DNA of 64,000 nt. It comes from Bacilli bacterium (GTDB lineage: Bacteria; Bacillota_I; Bacilli_A; RFN20; CAG-826). The stretch spans positions 237,064 through 301,063 of the forward strand of contig JAFUEZ010000003.1 of the NCBI GenBank assembly GCA_017470115.1, in the 5' to 3' direction. Of the stretch, positions 16,301 through 61,930 are shown in pieces (within the stretch, counting starts at the first letter, position 1; every line of letters starts with the position of its first letter). A program made the position numbers and the translations under genes. The notes under the pieces are model-generated. The model did no database searches. It worked only from the letters and a program-made list of their open reading frames with translations, and was not told the DNA's origin.

Positions 16301-17846
16301 ATGTTTATAAATAAAACATTTGAAGGCGACAACATACCTAAAGCTACAAAATGGCTATATCTTTCTAGTGCAATGTTTAGAGACTTAGCTTATCAATTTG
16401 TCTCGATGTTTTTGTTGATGTTTGCTCAATATTGTGGACTTGGTGGCGAATCAGATTATTCACAATATCTTGCGATGTATGGTGTGATTTCTCTCATCAT
16501 AATTATATTGAGACTATGGGATGGCTTTAATGACCCAATTATGGGATTCATTTTAGAAAAATCTAAACTTAGAAAATTTGGCAAATATCGTCCATGGATT
16601 TTTATAGGAGCTGTCGGTTCAAGTATAATGACGCTTTTAATGTTCTGGCTTCCAGTCCACGGGTGGGCTTATGTAGCATGTTTTGCAGTTTTCTATTTCT
16701 TCTGGGATCTTACCTATACAATGAATGATATTGCATATTGGTCAGTTCTTCCTTCATTATCGCACCATGAAAAAGTGAGAAGTCATTTGACAACTATAAT
16801 CTCTATATTTGTTTCAATTGGTGCTTTTGCTGCTGGTGGAATTGTTCCAATTTTATCAAGTGCGCTTGGATACACTGTTTCTTATAGGGCCTTTTCATTG
16901 ATTGCTTCTGTTCTTTATTTAGTTTCACAAGTTGTATTGTGTGTATTCATGAAAGAAAGAAAAGAAGATGAAAGTCAAATTAAAGCTAGTGAAAGCATGA
17001 AAATGAGAGATATTTTTACTGTTTTAGGTAAAAATAGCCAAGTTAGAAGTTCGATTATTGGAGTATTGCTTTATTACACAGGATCATCAATCTTAGTCAC
17101 TTTAGGGTTAAATTATTTCTATTTCAATTTTGGATATAGTGATGCAGGTTCATATCAATTCTATTTTACAATTGTTTATGCTGCAGCAACTTTATTAGCA
17201 CAATTTAGTTTCCAATTTATTTTGAATAAACTCAAATGGACTCTTAAAAAGCTTATGACTATATCTGGAATTGTTGTAGGGGTTGGATATTTAGGGTTAT
17301 TTTTCTATGTATTTTTAGATCCATTTGCCTTTTTCCCACTTATGGCAGTCCTTGGATTTATAGTATTTTATTTCCAAACATTCTTCCAACTTATTATCTA
17401 TATTAATATTCAGGATTCAATCGAATATAACGATTATAAATTTGGTGAAAGAAGAGAATCTGCTGTATTTTCTTTAAGAGCTTTAGCAGCAAAACTTGGT
17501 AACTCTATTCAACAAGGTGTTTTATATCTTGCTTTGTTGATTGGTGGACTTTTAGCTATTTCAAATCAAATAAGTGGTTTTGAGCAAGAAGCAATTGTTC
17601 AATTTAATGGAGACGTAGCTCAAATTAGCGAATATGTTAAGACTCATGCAGATGCAATCACAGGAACAGCAAATGTTGAGTTATGGCAAAGAGTAGTTTA
17701 TCAAGTTGGCTTTACAATCGTACCAATGTTATTTATGGTAGGGTGTTTTATTTTTATGGGTGCAACTTTCAGAATTAACGAAAAGAATCATGAAGAGATG
17801 GTTGCTGAAATAGAAAAAAGAAAAGTTAAAAATGAAGAAAGGGTAA

Positions 17847-17854
<8 letters not shown>
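16301..17854 (+). CDS. GPH-family sugar:cation symporter (MelB-like MFS)
   Basis: 517 residues from ATG 16301, chosen over the upstream GTG at 16292 because AAAGGTG lies 6 nt before the ATG. About 12 hydrophobic helices. The N-terminal RDLAYQFVSMFLLMF stretch and the LWDGFNDPIMGFILEKSK motif with GKYRPWI are typical of glycoside-pentoside-hexuronide symporters, which couple sugar uptake to H+ or Na+. It is the first gene of an operon with GH13 and GH2 enzymes, so the cargo is probably an alpha- or beta-linked oligosaccharide. It overlaps the GH13 gene by 8 bp. Confidence 0.88.
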
Positions 17855-38938: not shown

Positions 38939-40942
38939 ATGGCTGAAAAAGCAAAAAAAGGATTTTTTGAGACAAAATTAATGTCGACAAAAATCAAGAG
39001 CCAAACAGTCTCACTATTTCCTGAAGCAGCATTAGGTTATTTGCTTGGACCTATGCTTGCTTTAATGTCAAATGGCGTTGTTAATGGTTGGCTTGTCCAA
39101 TATTGGGACAAAGTTCTCGGCTTAGAAACTTGGGCAGCATTATTTGAAACAATCCTTCCAATTGTCTCCGCAATTATTATCGTTATCGGTAACTTAGTTG
39201 TTGGAAGATTGATGGAAAGAAAACCAAGTTTAGCCGGTAAGGCAAGACCACTCTTATTGATTGGTATGCCAATCGTTGCTATTGCTTTATTAGCATTATT
39301 CTTAGTGCCTTTCCCAGAAGCAGCTCGTGAAGTTCCAGAAGCAGGAGCTCAAGATAATGGCATTTTAGCATTAGCATTCGTTACAATTGGTTACAATTTA
39401 TACTACGCAATCGCATGGCCAATTTATTACACATCACACTCAGCACTTGTTGGTTTATCAACACGTGACAGTGGAAAACGTGGTTTACTTGGAACAGCTG
39501 TTATGGGTGCTCAATTAGCAGCCGCAGGTATTTCAGGTATGGCTGGTGGATTTCTTGTCGACTTATTAAAATTATTACCTGTTTATAAATATTCAGATGC
39601 GTTCTATGAAGCAAACAAAGAAAGTCTTAAATTAGCAGCACAAGTTACAAATAGTTTAAGTGAAGCACAACGTGATACTAACTATATAATTGAAGTTAGC
39701 CGTCAACAAGCAAATGAAAAATGGACTATTTTAATGATCGTTATGATCGGTGCTTTATTCCTTGGCGCTTTAATGGAATACTTCTTCACACGTGAAAGAA
39801 TTACTGAAGAAAACGTTAAATTTGAACGTTCACTTGGTGAAAAACAAGGTGAAGATAAGAAAGTTAAAAAAGGCTCAATGAAAGAGCAAATTTCCGTTTG
39901 TGTTAAAGATAAATACTGGTGGTTCATCATGATCTTCTGGTTCTTATATCAATTTGGTGGAATGATGAAGAATAATGGCATGTCATTCTACTCACAAGCA
40001 TTAACCGGAGAAAACGCACTTTCATCATTAATTAATACAGTTGGTGCAATTCCAACAGCAGTTGGTATGGCACTTGTCTGGCCAATTGCAATTAAATTCA
40101 CAAAAGCAAAATCAATTTCATTTGGTGGTATTCTTGCCGCTCTTGCAGCATCAGCAGCATTCTCATCATTAGCATTTATTGGAAATATTCCAGTTATCTC
40201 AACAATTTCTGTCGCTTCATTTGTTGTTAAAGCATTAGGCACAGCACCTGCAATGTATGTTTCAATGGCATTAATGGCAAACGTTCTTGATCACCAAGAA
40301 GCAGTTTATGGAATTAGAACTGATGGATTCTCAATGGCAGTTTATGGATCAATCATGGTCGCTATGGCAGGTGTCTGTAACGGTATCATCGTTGGTTTAA
40401 ATAATATCCCTGGCGTTGACAAAGCATTCTTAAATACATTCCTTGCTTATGGTGTTGAAGGTATTTGTTACTTAGCAATCGCTATTATGTTCTTATTCTT
40501 GAATGTTGAAAAATTCACAAGAGTTGACAACAAAGCAATCGTTGCTGATCATAAAGCTAAAGTTTTAGCAGAAGGTGGCGAATGGGTCGAACCTGAAGAA
40601 GCAACAAGACGTGAAGAAGAAGAAAATGCTCGTTTAGTTGAAGAAGCAAGAGTTGAACAATTAAAACTTGATTGTGAAAAGAAACATCTTAATTTCGAAG
40701 AAGAAAATGCTAAATATTTAGAAAAGAAAGCTGCAGCTGATAAAGCAGCAGCCGAAAAGAAAGCAGCTGCAGAAGCTGCAAAACAAGCAAAATATGACGC
40801 ATTAACTCAAGAACAAAAAGACGCAATTGAACAAAAGAAAGCTGCTAAGAAAGCTAAAGAAGATGCTGAAGATGAAAAAGCATTAGTCGAACTCAATAAA
40901 GCAAGAGAAGCTTTCAATAGACAAGCTGTTGTACTCGAATAA
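38939..40942 (+). CDS. GPH-type MFS transporter with long coiled-coil tail (probable rhamnose/rhamnoside uptake)
   Basis: 667 residues. The first about 530 form roughly 12 membrane helices in MFS/GPH arrangement; the N-terminus resembles GPH sugar symporters. Residues about 545-667 are a highly charged, Glu/Lys/Ala-rich coiled coil (DKAAAEKKAAAEAAKQAKYD), much longer than the usual tail and probably cytoplasmic. Position inside the rhamnose locus, behind a promoter with a related upstream site, points to rhamnose or a rhamnoside as cargo. An AGGAGG site is present. Bidirectional terminator after the gene. Confidence 0.85.
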   Translation: MAEKAKKGFFETKLMSTKIKSQTVSLFPEAALGYLLGPMLALMSNGVVNGWLVQYWDKVLGLETWAALFETILPIVSAIIIVIGNLVVGRLMERKPSLAGKARPLLLIGMPIVAIALLALFLVPFPEAAREVPEAGAQDNGILALAFVTIGYNLYYAIAWPIYYTSHSALVGLSTRDSGKRGLLGTAVMGAQLAAAGISGMAGGFLVDLLKLLPVYKYSDAFYEANKESLKLAAQVTNSLSEAQRDTNYIIEVSRQQANEKWTILMIVMIGALFLGALMEYFFTRERITEENVKFERSLGEKQGEDKKVKKGSMKEQISVCVKDKYWWFIMIFWFLYQFGGMMKNNGMSFYSQALTGENALSSLINTVGAIPTAVGMALVWPIAIKFTKAKSISFGGILAALAASAAFSSLAFIGNIPVISTISVASFVVKALGTAPAMYVSMALMANVLDHQEAVYGIRTDGFSMAVYGSIMVAMAGVCNGIIVGLNNIPGVDKAFLNTFLAYGVEGICYLAIAIMFLFLNVEKFTRVDNKAIVADHKAKVLAEGGEWVEPEEATRREEEENARLVEEARVEQLKLDCEKKHLNFEEENAKYLEKKAAADKAAAEKKAAAEAAKQAKYDALTQEQKDAIEQKKAAKKAKEDAEDEKALVELNKAREAFNRQAVVLE

Positions 40943-41893: not shown

Positions 41894-44188
41894 ATGTCAA
41901 AAGTTTTAAGTATAGATATAGGAGCAAGCTCAGGACGATTTATAGTTCTCAGTTATGAAAATGGTTTATTCTCATCTAAAGAGATTTATAGATTTTCTAA
42001 TGGAATGAAAACTATAAAAGGTCATTTGAGATGGGATATTGATAAGATTTTTGAAAACATTTTAGAAGGTTTAAAAATTACCTTAACTACATATAAAGAC
42101 ATCTCATCTATTGGTATCGACACTTGGGGAGTTGATTATGGATTGATTGATGATAATGGCAAGTTAATCGATCTTCCAATTGGCTATAGAGACGAAAGAA
42201 ATAAATTAGCCGCTAGAGAGCTTTTAAGCAAAATTAATTACCAACAAATATATGAAGAAAGTGGCATTCAATATTTAGATTTTAATACTATTTTCCAATT
42301 ATATAGTGATATAAAAAGTGGGATTAAATTCGAAACTTTCTTGTTAATTCCTGATTTGCTCGTTTATCTTTTAACAGGTGAAAGACGTACAGAAATTACT
42401 AATTTTTCAACAACTGGATTATATAATCCAACTACGAGAAAGGTCTCAAAGAAACTGCTTGATTTAATTGGCTTAGATGAAAGTAAAATTTCTCCATTTG
42501 TCTATCCATCTGAAAGAATTGGAGTTTTAAAAGACTCCATTGTTAAAGAACTTGGAATTTATCCAGTTGATGTTGTTTCTGTTGGAAGTCACGATACAGC
42601 AAGCTGCGTAGCTAGTGTTAAATTAAAAGAAAATTCTGCTTATATTTCGAGTGGTACATGGTCTTTATTAGGGATTGAACTCGATGAGCCAAATAAAAGC
42701 GTTGAAGCCTTTAAAGCAAATTTAACTAACGAAATTGGTGTTGAACATAAAGTGAGATTCCTCAAAAACATCATGGGTATGTTTATTGTTCAAGAATTGA
42801 AAAAAGATTTTGAAGTATTGCATCCAAATTTAAGTTTCCAAGATCTTCAAGATGAAGCAGCGACTGTGACTAATAATGAAATATATGTAGATATTAATAA
42901 TGATTTATTTTCAAAGCCTGGTGACATGCAAAAGAAATATTATGAATATCTTGTAAAAACTAGACAATATAAAAATACTCTTACAAATGGTGAAATAATT
43001 AGGTCAATTTATGAATCAATGGCCTTTAAATATAGAGAAGAATTTGAAAGATTAAAAGCCGTATCTAAAAAAGATTTAAACGAAATCATCGTTATTGGTG
43101 GTGGCAAAAACGCAAAACTTTTGAATCAGATTATAGCTGATACGCTTGATATAAAAGTTAAAACAGGATTAGGTGAAGCTACGATTTATGGTAATGCACT
43201 TGCTCAATTCATCTATTTAAAAGAATTTAAAAATTTAGATGAAGCTAGACAAAAACTTGCATTATCTTATGAGGAAGAGGAATTTCTCCCACAAAATGTT
43301 GGAATTTACGAACAAAAATACTCAAGATATAGAAATTTAATAGAAAGTAGAGGGTTCAATATGAGAGTGTTAGAAGCAAAATTTGTTAAACAATTTATTA
43401 AATTGTGCGATGAAGGATGGAAGAAAGGTTGGCACGAAAGAAACGGAGGAAATCTTTCTTATAGAATGACTGAAGAAGAAGCTAATTCTATAAAAGAAAA
43501 CTTTGTTGAATCAAAATGGCAAGATATTGGAACTGAGGTTCCTGAACTTGCAAACGAATACTTCTTAGTTACTGGAAGTGGTCGTTATATGATGAACGTT
43601 AAGGAATATCCAGAGTCAAATATTTGTATCATTAAAGTCGATAGAACAGGAACTAAATTCATGATTCTTTGGGGTTTAGTTGATGGGGGAAGACCAACAA
43701 GCGAACTCCCAAGTCATTTAATGAATCTTGAAGTTGTGAAAAAGAGAACAAATGGAAAATATAGAGTTGTCTATCATTGCCATGCAACAAACATCATTGC
43801 CCTTACTTTTGTTTTACCTCTTAGTAATGAAGTATTTACACGTGAATTATGGGAAATGGCAACAGAGTGTCCTGTAGTATTCCCTTCAGGAGTTGGTGTT
43901 GTTCCATGGATGGTTCCAGGCGGAAAAGATATTGCAATCGCAACATCTAAATTGATGGAAAAATATGATTTAGCAATTTGGGCACATCATGGAATTTTTG
44001 GAACAGGCGAAGACTTTGAATCAACATTTGGACTTGTTGATACAGTCGAAAAGAGTGCTGAAATTTTAGTTAAAGTATTATCAATGACTCACGAAAAACG
44101 TCAAACAATTACACGTCAAAACTTTGAAGATTTAGCCGCTGATTTTAAAGTCACACTTGATCCTGAAACTTTAAAGATTTGTAAATAA
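41894..44188 (+). CDS. Rhamnulokinase / rhamnulose-1-phosphate aldolase fusion
   Basis: 764 residues in one uninterrupted frame. Residues 1-480 are RhaB: DIGASSGRF, SIGIDTWGVDYGLIDDNG, GSHDTASCVAS and a late VIGGGKNAKLLNQIIAD. Residues 490-764 are RhaD (275 residues, as the stand-alone enzyme): MRVLEAKFVKQFI, ERNGGNLSYRM, zinc histidines in YHCHATN and WAHHGIFG, and a C-terminal domain with no gaps. The product would phosphorylate L-rhamnulose and split rhamnulose-1-phosphate to DHAP and L-lactaldehyde. M490 has AGAGGG 8 nt upstream, so a separate RhaD may also be made. AAAGGA precedes the first ATG. Confidence 0.9.
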   Translation: MSKVLSIDIGASSGRFIVLSYENGLFSSKEIYRFSNGMKTIKGHLRWDIDKIFENILEGLKITLTTYKDISSIGIDTWGVDYGLIDDNGKLIDLPIGYRDERNKLAARELLSKINYQQIYEESGIQYLDFNTIFQLYSDIKSGIKFETFLLIPDLLVYLLTGERRTEITNFSTTGLYNPTTRKVSKKLLDLIGLDESKISPFVYPSERIGVLKDSIVKELGIYPVDVVSVGSHDTASCVASVKLKENSAYISSGTWSLLGIELDEPNKSVEAFKANLTNEIGVEHKVRFLKNIMGMFIVQELKKDFEVLHPNLSFQDLQDEAATVTNNEIYVDINNDLFSKPGDMQKKYYEYLVKTRQYKNTLTNGEIIRSIYESMAFKYREEFERLKAVSKKDLNEIIVIGGGKNAKLLNQIIADTLDIKVKTGLGEATIYGNALAQFIYLKEFKNLDEARQKLALSYEEEEFLPQNVGIYEQKYSRYRNLIESRGFNMRVLEAKFVKQFIKLCDEGWKKGWHERNGGNLSYRMTEEEANSIKENFVESKWQDIGTEVPELANEYFLVTGSGRYMMNVKEYPESNICIIKVDRTGTKFMILWGLVDGGRPTSELPSHLMNLEVVKKRTNGKYRVVYHCHATNIIALTFVLPLSNEVFTRELWEMATECPVVFPSGVGVVPWMVPGGKDIAIATSKLMEKYDLAIWAHHGIFGTGEDFESTFGLVDTVEKSAEILVKVLSMTHEKRQTITRQNFEDLAADFKVTLDPETLKICK

Positions 44189-54119: not shown

Positions 54120-55049
54120 ATGAAAATTTTGAGTTTTGATTGGAGCAATTTTTGGGGAAGCATAGGTGATGCTTTCGTAGCTGGATGGGAACACTTTATA
54201 GAATTTTGGTTTTCATCTGAAAGCGGTGCAACTCCTTATGTTGTCACATTTTCAATTGGTTTAATATTTTTGGCTGTTTCTTATTTGATAGCAAAATTAG
54301 TTTTGTTGATTATCAAAAAGGCATTAAAGCTCGATACTGATTTTGTCAAAGAGAAAACTATAAAGAGATTTTTCTTTAATACATTAAAAGCAATAATTTA
54401 TATTCTTATTGTTTTAGTATTTTTAGTAATCCTCAAAGTTGATTTAACAGGCTTATCAACTATTATATCAAGTGCAATTTTAGCGATTGGTATCGCACTT
54501 CAAGATATCGTTGGTAATTTTGCTAGTGGTGTCATTATCGTTAATACAAAATTATTTGTAATTGGTGAATATATTGATGTTGGTGGCCTTTGTGAAGGTA
54601 CTGTTGAAGATGTTACTTTCTTAAATACCCATTTAAAGACAGTCGATGGCCAACAAGTTACAGTTCCAAATAAAACTATTACAAATTCAGTAATTAAAAA
54701 TTACTCAAGAAATGCTGTTAGAAGAATTAATGTAAATCTTGGAGTTGATTACAACACAGATATTGAACTTGCGAAGAAAGTTTTAATTGAACTTTGTAAA
54801 AACGATAAGAGAATTATGCAAGATCCAGCCCCTCAAGCAGTTTTAACAGCATTTAATGAATATAGTTTGAATTTATCGATAAGATGTTATGTTCCTACAA
54901 CAGTTTATTGGACTGTTTTATTTGATTTAAATGAGAAAATTCTCTATGCATTTAGAGAAAACAATATTTCAATTGCCTTCCCACGTGTTGCTTTATCGTC
55001 ACCTAGTGGTGAAGCGGTTTTACTAGAGAAAAAGGAAAGTAAGCGATGA
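54120..55049 (+). CDS. mscS: MscS-type mechanosensitive channel
   Basis: 309 residues. N-terminal helices, then the MscS pore helix region (STIISSAILAIGIALQDIVGNFASG), the beta domain (IGEYIDVGG, GTVEDVTFLNTHLKTVDGQ) and PNKTITNSVIKNYSR. It opens on membrane tension to release solutes. The stop TGA overlaps the next ATG by 4 bp, so it is translated with the first gene of the ATP synthase cluster. It has a leaderless-type promoter and no Shine-Dalgarno site. Confidence 0.95.
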   Translation: MKILSFDWSNFWGSIGDAFVAGWEHFIEFWFSSESGATPYVVTFSIGLIFLAVSYLIAKLVLLIIKKALKLDTDFVKEKTIKRFFFNTLKAIIYILIVLVFLVILKVDLTGLSTIISSAILAIGIALQDIVGNFASGVIIVNTKLFVIGEYIDVGGLCEGTVEDVTFLNTHLKTVDGQQVTVPNKTITNSVIKNYSRNAVRRINVNLGVDYNTDIELAKKVLIELCKNDKRIMQDPAPQAVLTAFNEYSLNLSIRCYVPTTVYWTVLFDLNEKILYAFRENNISIAFPRVALSSPSGEAVLLEKKESKR

Positions 55050-55468
55050 GTAAATTTTTTAATAATGATAAATCGTTGATATTAACTTATTTAGGTATTT
55101 CATTAATTTTTATAGGAGGGAGTTGTTTCTCTCTTTTTGCAAATACAGAATTTAATTATTATCCAATTGTTATAGCGGCAATCTCTTTTGTTTTTGGTTT
55201 AGCTTATTTGCTTTTTATGCTTAAAGCGGCAAACATTCAAATTAATGAGCAAAATAAGAAACAACCATCAGTTGCATCACTAATGATTATGAATTTTTTA
55301 AGATTCTTTATTGTAATTTTATCGATTGGATCTTCAGTTTTATTCATTTATTTTGGGCCAAGAACTGGAGAATTACCAAAGTGGGTTTTCTTACTTGTTT
55401 TAATTAATGGATTACCTTTAATGATCGATACAATTCTATTTTATATGAGGAGTAAATTCAGTGAATAA
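55046..55468 (+). CDS. AtpI-like membrane protein of the ATP synthase operon
   Basis: 140 residues with four hydrophobic helices (near 12-32, 38-60, 80-104, 112-133). Position directly before atpB is that of AtpI, which assists c-ring assembly; sequence similarity is too low to call it from residues. It overlaps mscS by 4 bp and atpB by 8 bp, so translation is coupled on both sides. Confidence 0.6.
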   Translation: MSKFFNNDKSLILTYLGISLIFIGGSCFSLFANTEFNYYPIVIAAISFVFGLAYLLFMLKAANIQINEQNKKQPSVASLMIMNFLRFFIVILSIGSSVLFIYFGPRTGELPKWVFLLVLINGLPLMIDTILFYMRSKFSE

Positions 55469-56294
55469 TGTCGTTCTAGACAGCATATTTGATGGATTCT
55501 TATCATTTGATTTTGATGATTGGTTTGTTCCAGAAATCATTTCATCTTTGATTGTAATTTTAATCATTATTATTCTTTCATTTGTAATTTATTTTAAATT
55601 CAAAGGGGCATCAGAAAATCCTTTAGAAGAACAAAAAGGTTTTAAACTTGTGATTTCAATGGCTGTTGAAAAAGTTGAAAACTTTGTTGTTGAAATAATG
55701 GGTGAAAATAATCGTGGTTTTGCTGGTGTAGCCTGTGGATTAGCTATATATGTGTTTTTAGCATTTATTTTTGGTCTTACAGGTTTAGCTTCTCCAATGT
55801 CCTATTTAGGAGTTTGCTTATCGCTTGGTTTTACAACTTTAATTTTTATCCACGTGACAGCAATAAGATATCAAAGATGGAGATATTTTAAACGTTACGT
55901 TGAACCTATTTTTATCTTTTTGCCTGTAAATATTATTACAACATTTACCCCAGGATTATCGCTTGCACTCCGTTTATTTGGAAACGCAATTGGTGGTTTT
56001 TGTATCATGGGTATCGTATATTTTTCGCTTGAAAATCTTTCAAACTTCATATTTGGAAGTATTTTTATGGGCAATTATTGGGCAAACTCACTTGGGGTTA
56101 CAGTGAGTGGAGCAGAGGGACCTGCAGGTATTTTCTTAGCTCCTGTAATAACTCCTATTTTACATTTTTACTTTGATTTATTTTCTGGATTCATCCAAAC
56201 ATTTGTTTATTTAATGCTTACATTAATTCAAATTCTTCAAGAAATTCCTGAAGAACCTGAATTGGTTATAGAAAAGGTATCACAAAATTCATAG
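55461..56294 (+). CDS. atpB: F0 ATP synthase subunit a
   Basis: 277 residues from GTG 55461 (GAGGAG 9 nt upstream; overlaps the AtpI-like end by 8 bp). Five to six membrane helices. The essential arginine R171 lies in LSLALRLFGNAIGG. The C-terminal helix is preceded by ITPILHFYFDLFSGFIQTFV, with the conserved polar residues of the proton/sodium half-channel. It forms the stator channel against the c-ring. Confidence 0.95.
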   Translation: MNNVVLDSIFDGFLSFDFDDWFVPEIISSLIVILIIIILSFVIYFKFKGASENPLEEQKGFKLVISMAVEKVENFVVEIMGENNRGFAGVACGLAIYVFLAFIFGLTGLASPMSYLGVCLSLGFTTLIFIHVTAIRYQRWRYFKRYVEPIFIFLPVNIITTFTPGLSLALRLFGNAIGGFCIMGIVYFSLENLSNFIFGSIFMGNYWANSLGVTVSGAEGPAGIFLAPVITPILHFYFDLFSGFIQTFVYLMLTLIQILQEIPEEPELVIEKVSQNS

Positions 56295-56307
56295 AGGAGG
56301 TATACGT

Positions 56308-56571
56308 ATGGAATTACTTACAAATCTTGTGAACGTTTTGGTCAATGATCCAACCGGTATGGCTTATATCGGTATTGGTTTAATGGCTATTGCACTTGGT
56401 GCTTCTGGTGCTATGGAAGGTGCAATTTGTATGAAGACCGTTGAAAGTATGGCAAGAAATCCTGAAATGTATTCTAAATTAAGAACTGCAATGATCATTG
56501 GATGTGCTTTAACTGAAACAACGGCTATTTACGGATTAGTTGTTGCTATTTTACTTATCTTCGTTGGTTAA
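56308..56571 (+). CDS. atpE: F0 ATP synthase subunit c, two-carboxylate type
   Basis: 87 residues, two helices joined by the ARNPE loop. Ion-binding carboxylate E70 in ALTETTAIYG; on helix 1 E37 replaces the Gln of Na+ enzymes (Ilyobacter Q32) in GAMEGAICMKTVES. T71 and Y75 also match the Na+ signature. A two-glutamate site is known from the Na+-driven Fusobacterium nucleatum c-ring. An AGAGGAGG site is present. It builds the rotor ring; the ion is probably Na+ (inference). Confidence 0.95.
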   Translation: MELLTNLVNVLVNDPTGMAYIGIGLMAIALGASGAMEGAICMKTVESMARNPEMYSKLRTAMIIGCALTETTAIYGLVVAILLIFVG

Positions 56572-56577
56572 TGGATT

Positions 56578-57189
56578 ATGAAAACTAAAAATAGAAATAA
56601 GAAATTATTTTTATTAAGTTTAGTTTCATTATTCGTGTTAACTTCTTGCGACACTGATAAGTTTGGAGATGATCTCGCATCGACTATTGAATCTAAATTG
56701 ATCCCAAATCTATGGGCGTTTTTGGTTCAATTCATCGCTTTGCTTGTAATGCTCTTTATCGTTGTTAAGTTTGCTTATAAACCTGTTTCAAAATATTTAA
56801 AAGCTAGACGTGAAACTTTGAAAAACGAAGTTGACGATACTTTTAAGAAAAATGAAGAGGCTAAAGTAAATCTTGAAAAATCTGAAGCTCAACTTGCTGA
56901 TACACGTCGACAAGCAGACGTCATTTTAAACGAGGCTACTTTAGAAGCAAATAAAACACGTAATGAAATACTTGAGCAAGCAAATCAAGAAGCTTTAGAA
57001 ACAAGGAACAAAGCTCTTGATGATATCGAAAGAGCAAAAGCAAAAGCTACTCGAGAAGTTAGAAATGAGATTGTTGATGTTGCTCTTGACGCAACAGGAA
57101 AACTTTTAGAGCGTGAAGTTAATACAAAAGACAATACGAAAATAGTTGATGATTTTATTAAAGGTTTAGAGGAAGAATCGGATAAGTAA
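56578..57189 (+). CDS. atpF: F0 ATP synthase subunit b, lipoprotein form
   Basis: 203 residues. N-terminal signal ending in lipobox FVLTSC with C24, then a second membrane helix (about 43-66) and a long charged coiled coil (about 70-185) typical of subunit b. The extra N-terminal lipidated segment is known from mycoplasmas. It anchors the peripheral stalk to F0. It begins 6 bp after atpE without a good Shine-Dalgarno site. Confidence 0.93.
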   Translation: MKTKNRNKKLFLLSLVSLFVLTSCDTDKFGDDLASTIESKLIPNLWAFLVQFIALLVMLFIVVKFAYKPVSKYLKARRETLKNEVDDTFKKNEEAKVNLEKSEAQLADTRRQADVILNEATLEANKTRNEILEQANQEALETRNKALDDIERAKAKATREVRNEIVDVALDATGKLLEREVNTKDNTKIVDDFIKGLEEESDK

Positions 57190-57191
57190 TA

Positions 57192-57725
57192 ATGGGTGAA
57201 GAAAGTTTGTTTAATAGATATGCAATCGCATTACTGAGCTTAGCAATTGAAAAAAATGAAGTTGCAAGTTTTCGTGATGAAGTTAAGCAAATTGTTGTTA
57301 TTTTAAGAGAAAACCGTGAATTTGCAGAGATTTTGGCAGATTCAAATTACACTCTTGAAGATAAAAACAAGATACTTGATAAAGTTTTTGCTTCTGTTAA
57401 CACTGATATACTTTCTTTTACAAAAATTATTATTCGTAATGGCAGAGCATTTTACTTATACGAAATTTTTAAAGAAACGCTTTATAGATTTGACGACTAT
57501 TTGAATATTGAAGAAGGCACTTTCTATTGTGTTTCATCTATGAAAGATGAAGATATTAAAAAAGCAATAGAAGCCGTAGAAAAGAAACTTAATAAAAAAG
57601 TTGAATGTGAAATTATTCGCGATGAAACGCTACTTGGCGGATTCAAATTAGTTGTTAAAGATAATGTTTTCGATGCAAGTTTAAAAACTAGACTAGCACG
57701 ACTAAAAGAAAGCGTTAAAAAATGA
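57192..57725 (+). CDS. atpH: F1 ATP synthase subunit delta
   Basis: 177 residues. N-terminal helical domain (RYAIALLSLAIEKNEVASF) and C-terminal KVECEIIRDETLLGGFKLVV motif with the GG turn, standard for OSCP/delta. It links the peripheral stalk to the alpha subunits. It starts 2 bp after atpF and ends 10 bp before the atpA ATG. Confidence 0.92.
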   Translation: MGEESLFNRYAIALLSLAIEKNEVASFRDEVKQIVVILRENREFAEILADSNYTLEDKNKILDKVFASVNTDILSFTKIIIRNGRAFYLYEIFKETLYRFDDYLNIEEGTFYCVSSMKDEDIKKAIEAVEKKLNKKVECEIIRDETLLGGFKLVVKDNVFDASLKTRLARLKESVKK

Positions 57726-57735
57726 GGTGCTTATT

Positions 57736-59244
57736 ATGCAAATAAAACCTAATGAAATCAGCTCTTTAATTAAAGAGCAAATAAAAGAATTTAAGTCTAC
57801 CCCAGAATATACAAAAGATATTGGTACAGTTGTTTCTGTTGGAGATGGAATTGCAATTATTTACGGCTTACGTAATGCTATTTTAGGTGAGCTTTTAGAG
57901 TTTTCATCAGATAGTTATGGTATGGTCATGAACTTAGAAGAAGATAGCGTTGCTTGTGTTCTTTTAAGTAACAAAAATGACATTAAAGAAGGTGAAAAAG
58001 TTAAACGTACTGGTAAAGTCATTGAAGTTCCTGTTGGTGACCAAATGCTTGGAAGAGTTGTTGATTCACTTGGAAGAGCAATCGATGATGGAGATCCAAT
58101 TGAAGTCAAAGAAACTAGACCAATCGAATGTAAAGCTCCATCAATTATGGAGCGTCAATCAGTCAATTCACCTTTAGAAACTGGTATCAAATGTATCGAC
58201 TCTGTTATCCCTATTGGTAAGGGTCAACGTGAGCTTATTATCGGAGATAGACAAACAGGAAAAACAGCGATTGCTATCGACACAATCCTTAATCAAAAAG
58301 GAAAAAATGTTTATTGTGTTTATGTTGCAATCGGACAAAAAAATAGTAGTGTTGCATCAATTGTTGATCGCTTAAAGAGAAATGATGCAATGAAATATTC
58401 ACTCGTTGTTAATGCTTCCGCAAGTGAGATTTCACCATTACAATACATTGCTCCATACGCAGGTCTTGCAATGGCTGAATATTGGATGAGAAATGGTAAA
58501 GATGTACTTATTGTTTTTGATGATTTGAGTAAACAAGCTGTCGCATATCGTGCTTTATCTTTACTTTTGAAACGCTCCCCAGGAAGAGAAGCTTATCCAG
58601 GTGATATTTTTTACTTGCACTCAAGATTACTTGAAAGGTGTGCAAGATTAAACGATAAATATGGTGGTGGTTCGATTACCGCTCTTCCAATTGTTGAAAC
58701 ACAAGCTGGAGATATTTCTGCTTATATTCCAACAAATGTCATTTCAATTACTGATGGACAAATTTTCTTACAAACAGATCTTTTCAATGCTGGTCAACGT
58801 CCAGCTATTGATACTGGTTTGTCAGTTAGTCGTGTTGGTAGTAGTGCTCAATATAAAGCAATGAAACAAGTTTCAAAATCAATCAAAATGGATCTTGCAA
58901 ATTATCATGAACTTTTATCATTTGCACAATTTGGTAGTGATTTAGATGAATCGACTAAAAAGATTTTAAATCATGGTAGAGTTGTCACCGAACTTTTAAA
59001 ACAAGAACAATATTCTCCACTATCTTTAGATAAAGAAGTCGTTCAAATTTATGCAGGTATGAATGGATATTTAGATGCAGTTGATCCTGATAAAGTTAGC
59101 GCATTCTTAGAAAATTTATATACATATATTTCACGTTTTCATGGAGAGATTTTAGTTGAAATCAATGCAAAACACGAATTAAATTCTGAAATTGAACAAA
59201 AATTAAAAGAGGCAATTGAAAGTTTTATTAAAGAAAGAGCTTAA
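57736..59244 (+). CDS. atpA: F1 ATP synthase subunit alpha
   Basis: 502 residues from ATG 57736 (GAGGTG 7 nt upstream; the GTG at 57727 lies inside that site). Regulatory nucleotide-binding subunit: P-loop GDRQTGKT at 170-177, VYVAIGQKNSSVA, VIVFDDLSKQAVAYR-type motif (here VLIVFDDLSKQAVAYR), and the DTGLSVSRVGSSAQ signature. Full length and intact. Confidence 0.97.
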   Translation: MQIKPNEISSLIKEQIKEFKSTPEYTKDIGTVVSVGDGIAIIYGLRNAILGELLEFSSDSYGMVMNLEEDSVACVLLSNKNDIKEGEKVKRTGKVIEVPVGDQMLGRVVDSLGRAIDDGDPIEVKETRPIECKAPSIMERQSVNSPLETGIKCIDSVIPIGKGQRELIIGDRQTGKTAIAIDTILNQKGKNVYCVYVAIGQKNSSVASIVDRLKRNDAMKYSLVVNASASEISPLQYIAPYAGLAMAEYWMRNGKDVLIVFDDLSKQAVAYRALSLLLKRSPGREAYPGDIFYLHSRLLERCARLNDKYGGGSITALPIVETQAGDISAYIPTNVISITDGQIFLQTDLFNAGQRPAIDTGLSVSRVGSSAQYKAMKQVSKSIKMDLANYHELLSFAQFGSDLDESTKKILNHGRVVTELLKQEQYSPLSLDKEVVQIYAGMNGYLDAVDPDKVSAFLENLYTYISRFHGEILVEINAKHELNSEIEQKLKEAIESFIKERA

Positions 59245-59247
59245 TAA

Positions 59248-61522
<2,275 letters not shown>

Positions 61523-61523
<1 letters not shown>

Positions 61524-61930
61524 TGTCCGATAAAATCCATTTAGAATTAATTTCAATTGATGGAAAAGAAGAATATGTCGATGTGGATTCTGTTTACGTT
61601 GACATCCCATATTCTGGTGTTTTAGGTATTCTTCCAAATAGACAATCAATAGTTGCAATGCTTCATATTGGATATTTTTACTACACAATCGGTGATGAAA
61701 AAGTGGTTTTTGCAATTAGTGGTGGAGTTTTAAATTTTAGAGACAATAGATGTGTTATTTTGGCAGATACTTGGGAAAAGCAAGAAGAACTAGATCTTGA
61801 ACGTATTACAAGAGCAAAAGAAAGAGCTGAAGGGATCCTTGAAAAAATAGACAACAAGAACTCAATTGAATACCAAAACGCAACTTTTAGTCTTAAAAAA
61901 GCTGTAAATAGATTGAAACTTTTAAAATGA
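61523..61930 (+). CDS. atpC: F1 ATP synthase subunit epsilon
   Basis: 135 residues. N-terminal beta barrel (DVDSVYVDIPYSGVLGILPNR resembles the VxxPxxGxxGILPxH motif) and C-terminal helices (RAKERAEGILEKIDN, then a Lys-rich end). Regulates F1 rotation. Followed 10 bp later by an ATP-grasp gene. Confidence 0.9.

What the first reader, a model, noticed from the sequence alone, without database searches (positions are those of the whole stretch)
56308..56571. ATP synthase c subunit with two carboxylates at the ion site (probable Na+ coupling)
Aligned on the VES...ARxPE loop, E37 occupies the Gln32 position of the Na+-binding Ilyobacter c subunit, and E70, T71 and Y75 fill the others. A two-glutamate Na+ site is known from Fusobacterium nucleatum. 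Na+ coupling would tie energy metabolism to Na+ gradients, and GPH sugar symporters in this window can also use Na+.
Basis: partly seen in the sequence, partly recalled or inferred. Interest (0 to 1): 0.6.

Follow-up and report, generated by a model that had tools for sequence, protein, structure and literature searches.

The report
Probable sodium-type ATP synthase rotor subunit
The gene encodes an ordinary F-type ATP synthase rotor subunit with every residue known to hold a sodium ion, and many sister species carry a second, separately acquired ATP synthase lacking one of those residues, so the choice between sodium and protons can be tested within one genus.

Summary
ORF 56308-56571 is the only F-type c subunit in this 1.41-Mb genome and lies in a complete atpBEFHAGDC operon. 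E37, E70, T71 and Y75 align with E32, E65, S66 and Y70 of the Fusobacterium nucleatum Na+ ring. The stated reason (two carboxylates, therefore Na+) is weak. E/D at position 37 occurs in essentially all 135 c sequences examined from this family, and two-carboxylate proton rings are known. The better argument is the complete ligand set including T72. New context: 15 of 26 genomes of the genus carry two F-type ATP synthases. Type I (the window's) always reads E-T-T. Type II always reads E-S/T-V/I/C, so it lacks the polar ligand, and its alpha and beta subunits group with another family's enzymes, which suggests horizontal transfer. The window's genome keeps only type I. It also has a complete rnfCDGEAB operon, a redox-driven ion pump whose ion is unproven. 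Most likely this is a Na+-coupled F1Fo (about 0.7). It is a new member of a known kind, and the type I/II pair is the interesting part.

The parts
56308..56571 (+). atpE, F-type ATP synthase c subunit, 87 aa; ion site E37, E70, T71, T72, Y75
   Evidence: AlphaFold2 helical hairpin (helices 15-50 and 52-86), best PDB fold match 3zk1
56416..56418 (+). codon of E37, the second carboxylate (E/Q32 position)
   Evidence: Alignment to 3zk1, 1yce and 4bem; conserved E/D across the family
56515..56523 (+). codons of E70-T71-T72, principal carboxylate, S66-type ligand and T67-type water ligand
   Evidence: A. woodii c2 (Na+ ring) also reads ETT
56530..56532 (+). codon of Y75 (Y70 position, stabilises the principal Glu)
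55461..56294 (+). atpB, a subunit, with the stator arginine in LALRLFGN
   Evidence: PF00119; alignment of a subunits
56578..57189 (+). atpF, b subunit with a lipobox signal peptide (LTSC)
   Evidence: PF00430; lipobox conserved in both enzyme types in the genus
57192..57725 (+). atpH, delta subunit
   Evidence: TIGR01145 above cutoff
57736..59244 (+). atpA, alpha subunit
   Evidence: Matches atpA in relatives
59248..60099 (+). atpG, gamma subunit
   Evidence: order and matches in relatives
60114..61523 (+). atpD, beta subunit
61523..61930 (+). atpC, epsilon subunit
   Evidence: NCBIfam epsilon models (TIGR01216 61 bits, just under its 67.25 cutoff)
55046..55468 (+). 140-aa membrane protein in the atpI position, no family match
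   Evidence: no hits; syntenic in the type I operons of G398 (L002), G199, G153 and G282, weak in G278

Best explanation
The ORF is the c (rotor) subunit of the cell's only F1Fo ATP synthase. Each c-c interface forms a two-carboxylate site. E37 keeps a proton throughout and acts like a glutamine, while E70, T71, the backbone carbonyl of residue 68 and a water held by T72 coordinate Na+, with Y75 locking E70. At physiological Na+ the ring carries Na+; at very low Na+ or low pH it carries H+. In this probably anaerobic cell the enzyme either makes ATP from the gradient built by the Rnf complex or hydrolyses ATP to build that gradient. Shown here: the residues, the operon, the family-wide conservation, the type I/type II contrast and the presence of Rnf. 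Inferred: Na+ binding, constitutive protonation of E37, and the direction of operation.
For: All Na+ ligands of solved Na+ rings are present, in the same spacing. The published sequence rule for position 67 is Ser/Thr/Gln/Arg in Na+ rings and Leu/Ile/Val in H+ rings, with Pro/Ser28 and Gly/Ala29 beside the water pocket (PMC2359735); the window has T72, S33 and G34. All 19 type I c subunits in the genus read ETT. The type II paralogues, mostly in the same cells (21 sequences), have V, I or C at that position, so T is kept in one enzyme and absent from the other. A complete rnfCDGEAB operon is on contig C18 of the same genome, with the window's tetranucleotide signature (distance 0.079 against 0.055-0.071 within the window). 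AlphaFold2 gives the c hairpin and 3zk1 is the top fold match.
Against: No measurement exists. Two-carboxylate rings include H+ rings (PMC3692424). One ring predicted to be Na+ from sequence proved H+-selective (PMC5376962), although it has Met where the window has T72. The nearest PDB sequences are Na+ rings, but the same is true of the type II paralogue, and the fold search also ranks H+ rings close behind, so those rankings say nothing about the ion. In the wider family, Rnf and the Na+-pumping decarboxylase beta subunit do not track T versus C at position 72. The ion pumped by this Rnf is unknown. The glycine motif is degraded (L30, A32, G34, M36, G38), so ring geometry may differ from c11.
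Confidence: 0.7

Rival explanations
1. A proton-coupled two-carboxylate ring: both E37 and E70 bind H+, only the E70 proton moves, and the remaining polar residues are relics of a Na+ ancestor.
For: Proton rings with two carboxylates exist (Streptococcus pneumoniae, Mycobacterium tuberculosis, B. pseudomallei N-type). Sequence prediction has failed once. E37 is family-wide whatever residue stands at position 72.
Against: The Thr at position 72, which bears on Na+ binding, is kept in all 19 type I sequences of the genus while the second enzyme has V, I or C there. B. pseudomallei lacks it (Met63).
Confidence: 0.17
2. A promiscuous ring that carries Na+ and H+ together under normal conditions, as reported for Methanosarcina acetivorans.
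For: A two-glutamate site with dual coupling has been described.
Against: The fuller ligand match is to F. nucleatum and A. woodii, where Na+ dominates.
Confidence: 0.12
3. A pseudogene or a c-like protein not part of an ATP synthase.
For: None found.
Against: The operon is complete and intact, gene order is conserved across the genus, and this is the sole PF00137 gene in the genome.
Confidence: 0.01

Closest known systems
Fusobacterium nucleatum F1Fo c11 ring (PDB 3zk1, PMC3692424)
   Same: Two glutamates (E32/E65), Tyr70, Thr67 and a hydroxyl at position 66; 38% identity over the aligned model
   Different: T instead of S at 66. The GxGxGxGxG motif is broken to L-A-G-M-G, so ring size may differ. 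No biochemical data here.
Acetobacterium woodii c2/c3 (PDB 4bem)
   Same: Identical E-T-T..Y block in a Na+ ring
   Different: Gln, not Glu, at position 32; the A. woodii ring also mixes in a larger c1 subunit (4bem_J)
Ilyobacter tartaricus c11 (PDB 1yce)
   Same: Same ligand positions
   Different: Gln32, Ser66, intact glycine motif
Burkholderia pseudomallei N-type ATPase c17 ring (PMC5376962)
   Same: Two-carboxylate site with Thr and Tyr; sequence-predicted Na+
   Different: Met at the T67 position, measured H+-selective; at that residue it resembles the type II paralogues more than the window
Type II F-type ATP synthase of the same genus (e.g. G199:C32, L152)
   Same: Complete F1Fo operon with the E37/E70/Y75 site
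   Different: V, I or C at position 72; a subunit about 35% identical; alpha and beta group with family f27

Membership tests
F-type ATP synthase c subunit (PF00137 / TIGR01260) | Curated profile match above cutoff | tested here: met
   55.1 bits against 24; 57.5 against 43.95
F-type ATP synthase c subunit (PF00137 / TIGR01260) | Helical hairpin with a carboxylate in the second helix | tested here: met
   AlphaFold2 pLDDT 82.7, helices 15-50 and 52-86; Foldseek top hits are c subunits with probability 1.00 but E only 3.8e-3, as expected for a short hairpin
F-type ATP synthase c subunit (PF00137 / TIGR01260) | Encoded in an atp operon with a, b, delta, alpha, gamma, beta and epsilon | tested here: met
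Na+-type c ring with two-carboxylate motif (F. nucleatum type) | Glu at position 32 and at position 65 | tested here: met
   E37 and E70
Na+-type c ring with two-carboxylate motif (F. nucleatum type) | Ser/Thr at 66, Ser/Thr/Gln/Arg at 67, Tyr at 70 | tested here: met
   T71, T72, Y75
Na+-type c ring with two-carboxylate motif (F. nucleatum type) | Glycine motif GxGxGxGxG in helix 1 (shared by known Na+ F-type rings, but a ring-size motif, not an ion ligand) | tested here: not met
   L30, A32, G34, M36, G38. Changing the motif in I. tartaricus alters ring size and does not necessarily impair Na+ coupling (PMC3692424)
Na+-type c ring with two-carboxylate motif (F. nucleatum type) | Na+ blocks NCD-4/DCCD labelling and ATPase activity depends on Na+ | not testable with these tools
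   Needs biochemistry
N-type ATPase | Own operon order with beta and epsilon first; alternate-F1Fo family models | tested here: not met
   Order is atpBEFHAGDC; TIGR03322, TIGR03321 and TIGR03306 score far below cutoff

The most novel reading that the evidence does not exclude
Members of this genus run two complete F-type ATP synthases with different coupling ions in one small cell: the native type I on Na+ and a horizontally acquired type II on H+. The difference comes down largely to one residue next to the ion-binding glutamate, and lineages such as the window's have only the Na+ enzyme.
Probability: 0.45. Interest if true: 0.6.

Novelty: new member of a known kind. Interest (0 to 1): 0.36.

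Why it matters
If right, energy coupling in this uncultured group of small-genome Bacilli is Na+-based, and the type I/type II pair is a natural comparison of two-carboxylate rings that differ at the water-ligand position. That would help settle whether ion choice can be read from a c-subunit sequence, a prediction that has already failed once (B. pseudomallei).

Tried and rejected
Nearest solved structure as evidence for Na+: rejected, because type II paralogues hit the same Na+ rings. Co-occurrence of Rnf or of the Na+-pumping decarboxylase beta subunit with T versus C at position 72 across the family: no clean association. Membrane pyrophosphatase, NhaC and decarboxylase beta in the window's genome: none found. 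A second c gene in the window's genome: none. N-type ATPase: rejected on gene order and model scores. GPH symporters as evidence for Na+: not informative. A two-ATPase precedent was searched for in the open-access library without a hit; that library is incomplete, so this is not evidence of absence.

Full report
What is there. ORF 56308-56571 (+) encodes an 87-aa protein that is a standard F-type c subunit by Pfam and NCBIfam and by predicted fold (two long helices, best PDB matches all c subunits, top hit the F. nucleatum sodium ring 3zk1). It is the only PF00137 gene found in the 1.41-Mb, 96%-complete genome that holds the window. It sits in a complete atpBEFHAGDC operon at 55461-61930. In the type I operons read across the genus this operon keeps much the same neighbours: a uridine-kinase-like gene, mscS and a small unclassified membrane protein upstream, and an ATP-grasp gene and soluble pyrophosphatase downstream.

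The residues. Against the solved rings, E37 falls on E/Q32, E70 on E65, T71 on S66, T72 on T67 and Y75 on Y70. A published survey states that predicted Na+ rings have Ser, Thr, Gln or Arg there and predicted H+ rings Leu, Ile or Val (PMC2359735). The Pro/Ser28 and Gly/Ala29 pair named in that survey is S33-G34 here.

What the two carboxylates do and do not say. In the family to which the genome belongs, 133 of 135 c sequences show E or D at position 37, and the other two are alignment slips. The motif is therefore an inherited family trait. Two-carboxylate proton rings are known, and the second glutamate is thought to be permanently protonated, equivalent to glutamine. The B. pseudomallei ring, predicted Na+ from sequence, was measured to be H+-selective; it has Met at the T67 position. 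The inference must rest on the complete ligand set.

A paired comparison. Of 26 genomes in the genus, 15 carry two F-type c genes, 4 (including the window's) only the window-like type I, 6 only type II, and one none. Several of these genomes are incomplete, so single-type counts are upper bounds. All 19 type I sequences read E-T-T. All 21 type II sequences keep the two glutamates and the tyrosine but have V or I (19) or C (2) in place of T72. In five genomes (G199, G153, G278, G402 and G380) both types were placed in the alpha+beta tree; G282 and the window were placed as type I. The remaining genomes were typed by c sequence alone, and G382 is a distant type I. The tree gives a type I clade (100/99). 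It places type II with operons of another family of the order, f27 (G404, G407, G410; 100/100), which points to horizontal transfer, direction not proven. A search of 279 genomes of the order finds close type II c genes (62% or more) only in this genus and in two f27 genomes.

Energetic setting. The genome carries a complete rnfCDGEAB operon followed by an ApbE-like gene on contig C18, whose tetranucleotide signature matches the window's. RnfD was found by profile search; the other Rnf genes were named from order, length and sequence character and from matches to the G380 and G065 operons. Only one other genome of the genus has RnfD. The genome lacks membrane pyrophosphatase, the decarboxylase beta subunit and NhaC, and has one CPA-type Na+/H+ exchanger gene. 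Rnf pumps Na+ or H+ depending on the species (general knowledge), so this supports an ion-gradient economy, not the identity of the ion. Across the family, Rnf and decarboxylase presence do not follow the residue at position 72.

Ring size. The helix-1 glycine motif is degraded to L30, A32, G34, M36, G38. Met at position 36 is seen only here and in the nearest relative G398; most of the genus has Gly or Ala there. Changes in this motif enlarge the I. tartaricus ring without necessarily impairing Na+ coupling (PMC3692424), so a ring size other than c11 is plausible, but this is inference.

Verdict. Na+ coupling is likely (about 0.7) but for a somewhat different reason than given. The gene is a new member of a known kind; the type I/type II pair is what a specialist might want to test.

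Noticed in passing
L150 767-6913 (G000:C18): Complete rnfCDGEAB operon followed by an ApbE-like gene and a NusG-domain-like protein in the window's genome; in the genus only G380 shares RnfD.
   Followed up: yes
L152, L154, L156, L258, L263 (type II operons); L287 (G404) and L288 (G389) in family f27: Second complete F-type ATP synthase in many genomes of the genus, grouping with another family's enzymes, with V/I/C in place of the Thr next to the ion-site Glu.
   Followed up: partly
window 56578-57189: The b subunit starts with a lipoprotein signal (LTSC); the lipobox is present in b subunits of both ATP synthase types in the genus, recalling the lipoprotein b subunit of mycoplasmas (from memory).
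   Followed up: partly
window 55046-55468: 140-aa membrane protein with no family match in the atpI position, syntenic in relatives but diverging fast (66% identical in the closest relative, 21-46% in others).
   Followed up: partly
G192 (same genus, 96% complete): No F-type c subunit detected at all, so one species of the genus may lack an F-type ATP synthase.
   Followed up: no
several family genomes, e.g. L168, L006, L120: Asp directly before the ion-site Glu (D-E-T-T / D-E-S-T), a possible third carboxylate close to the site.
   Followed up: no
window 16301-17854 and 38939-40942: Two GPH-type (MFS_2) sugar transporters confirmed by Pfam; coupling ion not readable from sequence. The second is unusually long (667 aa).
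   Followed up: partly
window 41894-44188: Single ORF fusing an FGGY sugar kinase to a class II aldolase domain.
   Followed up: no
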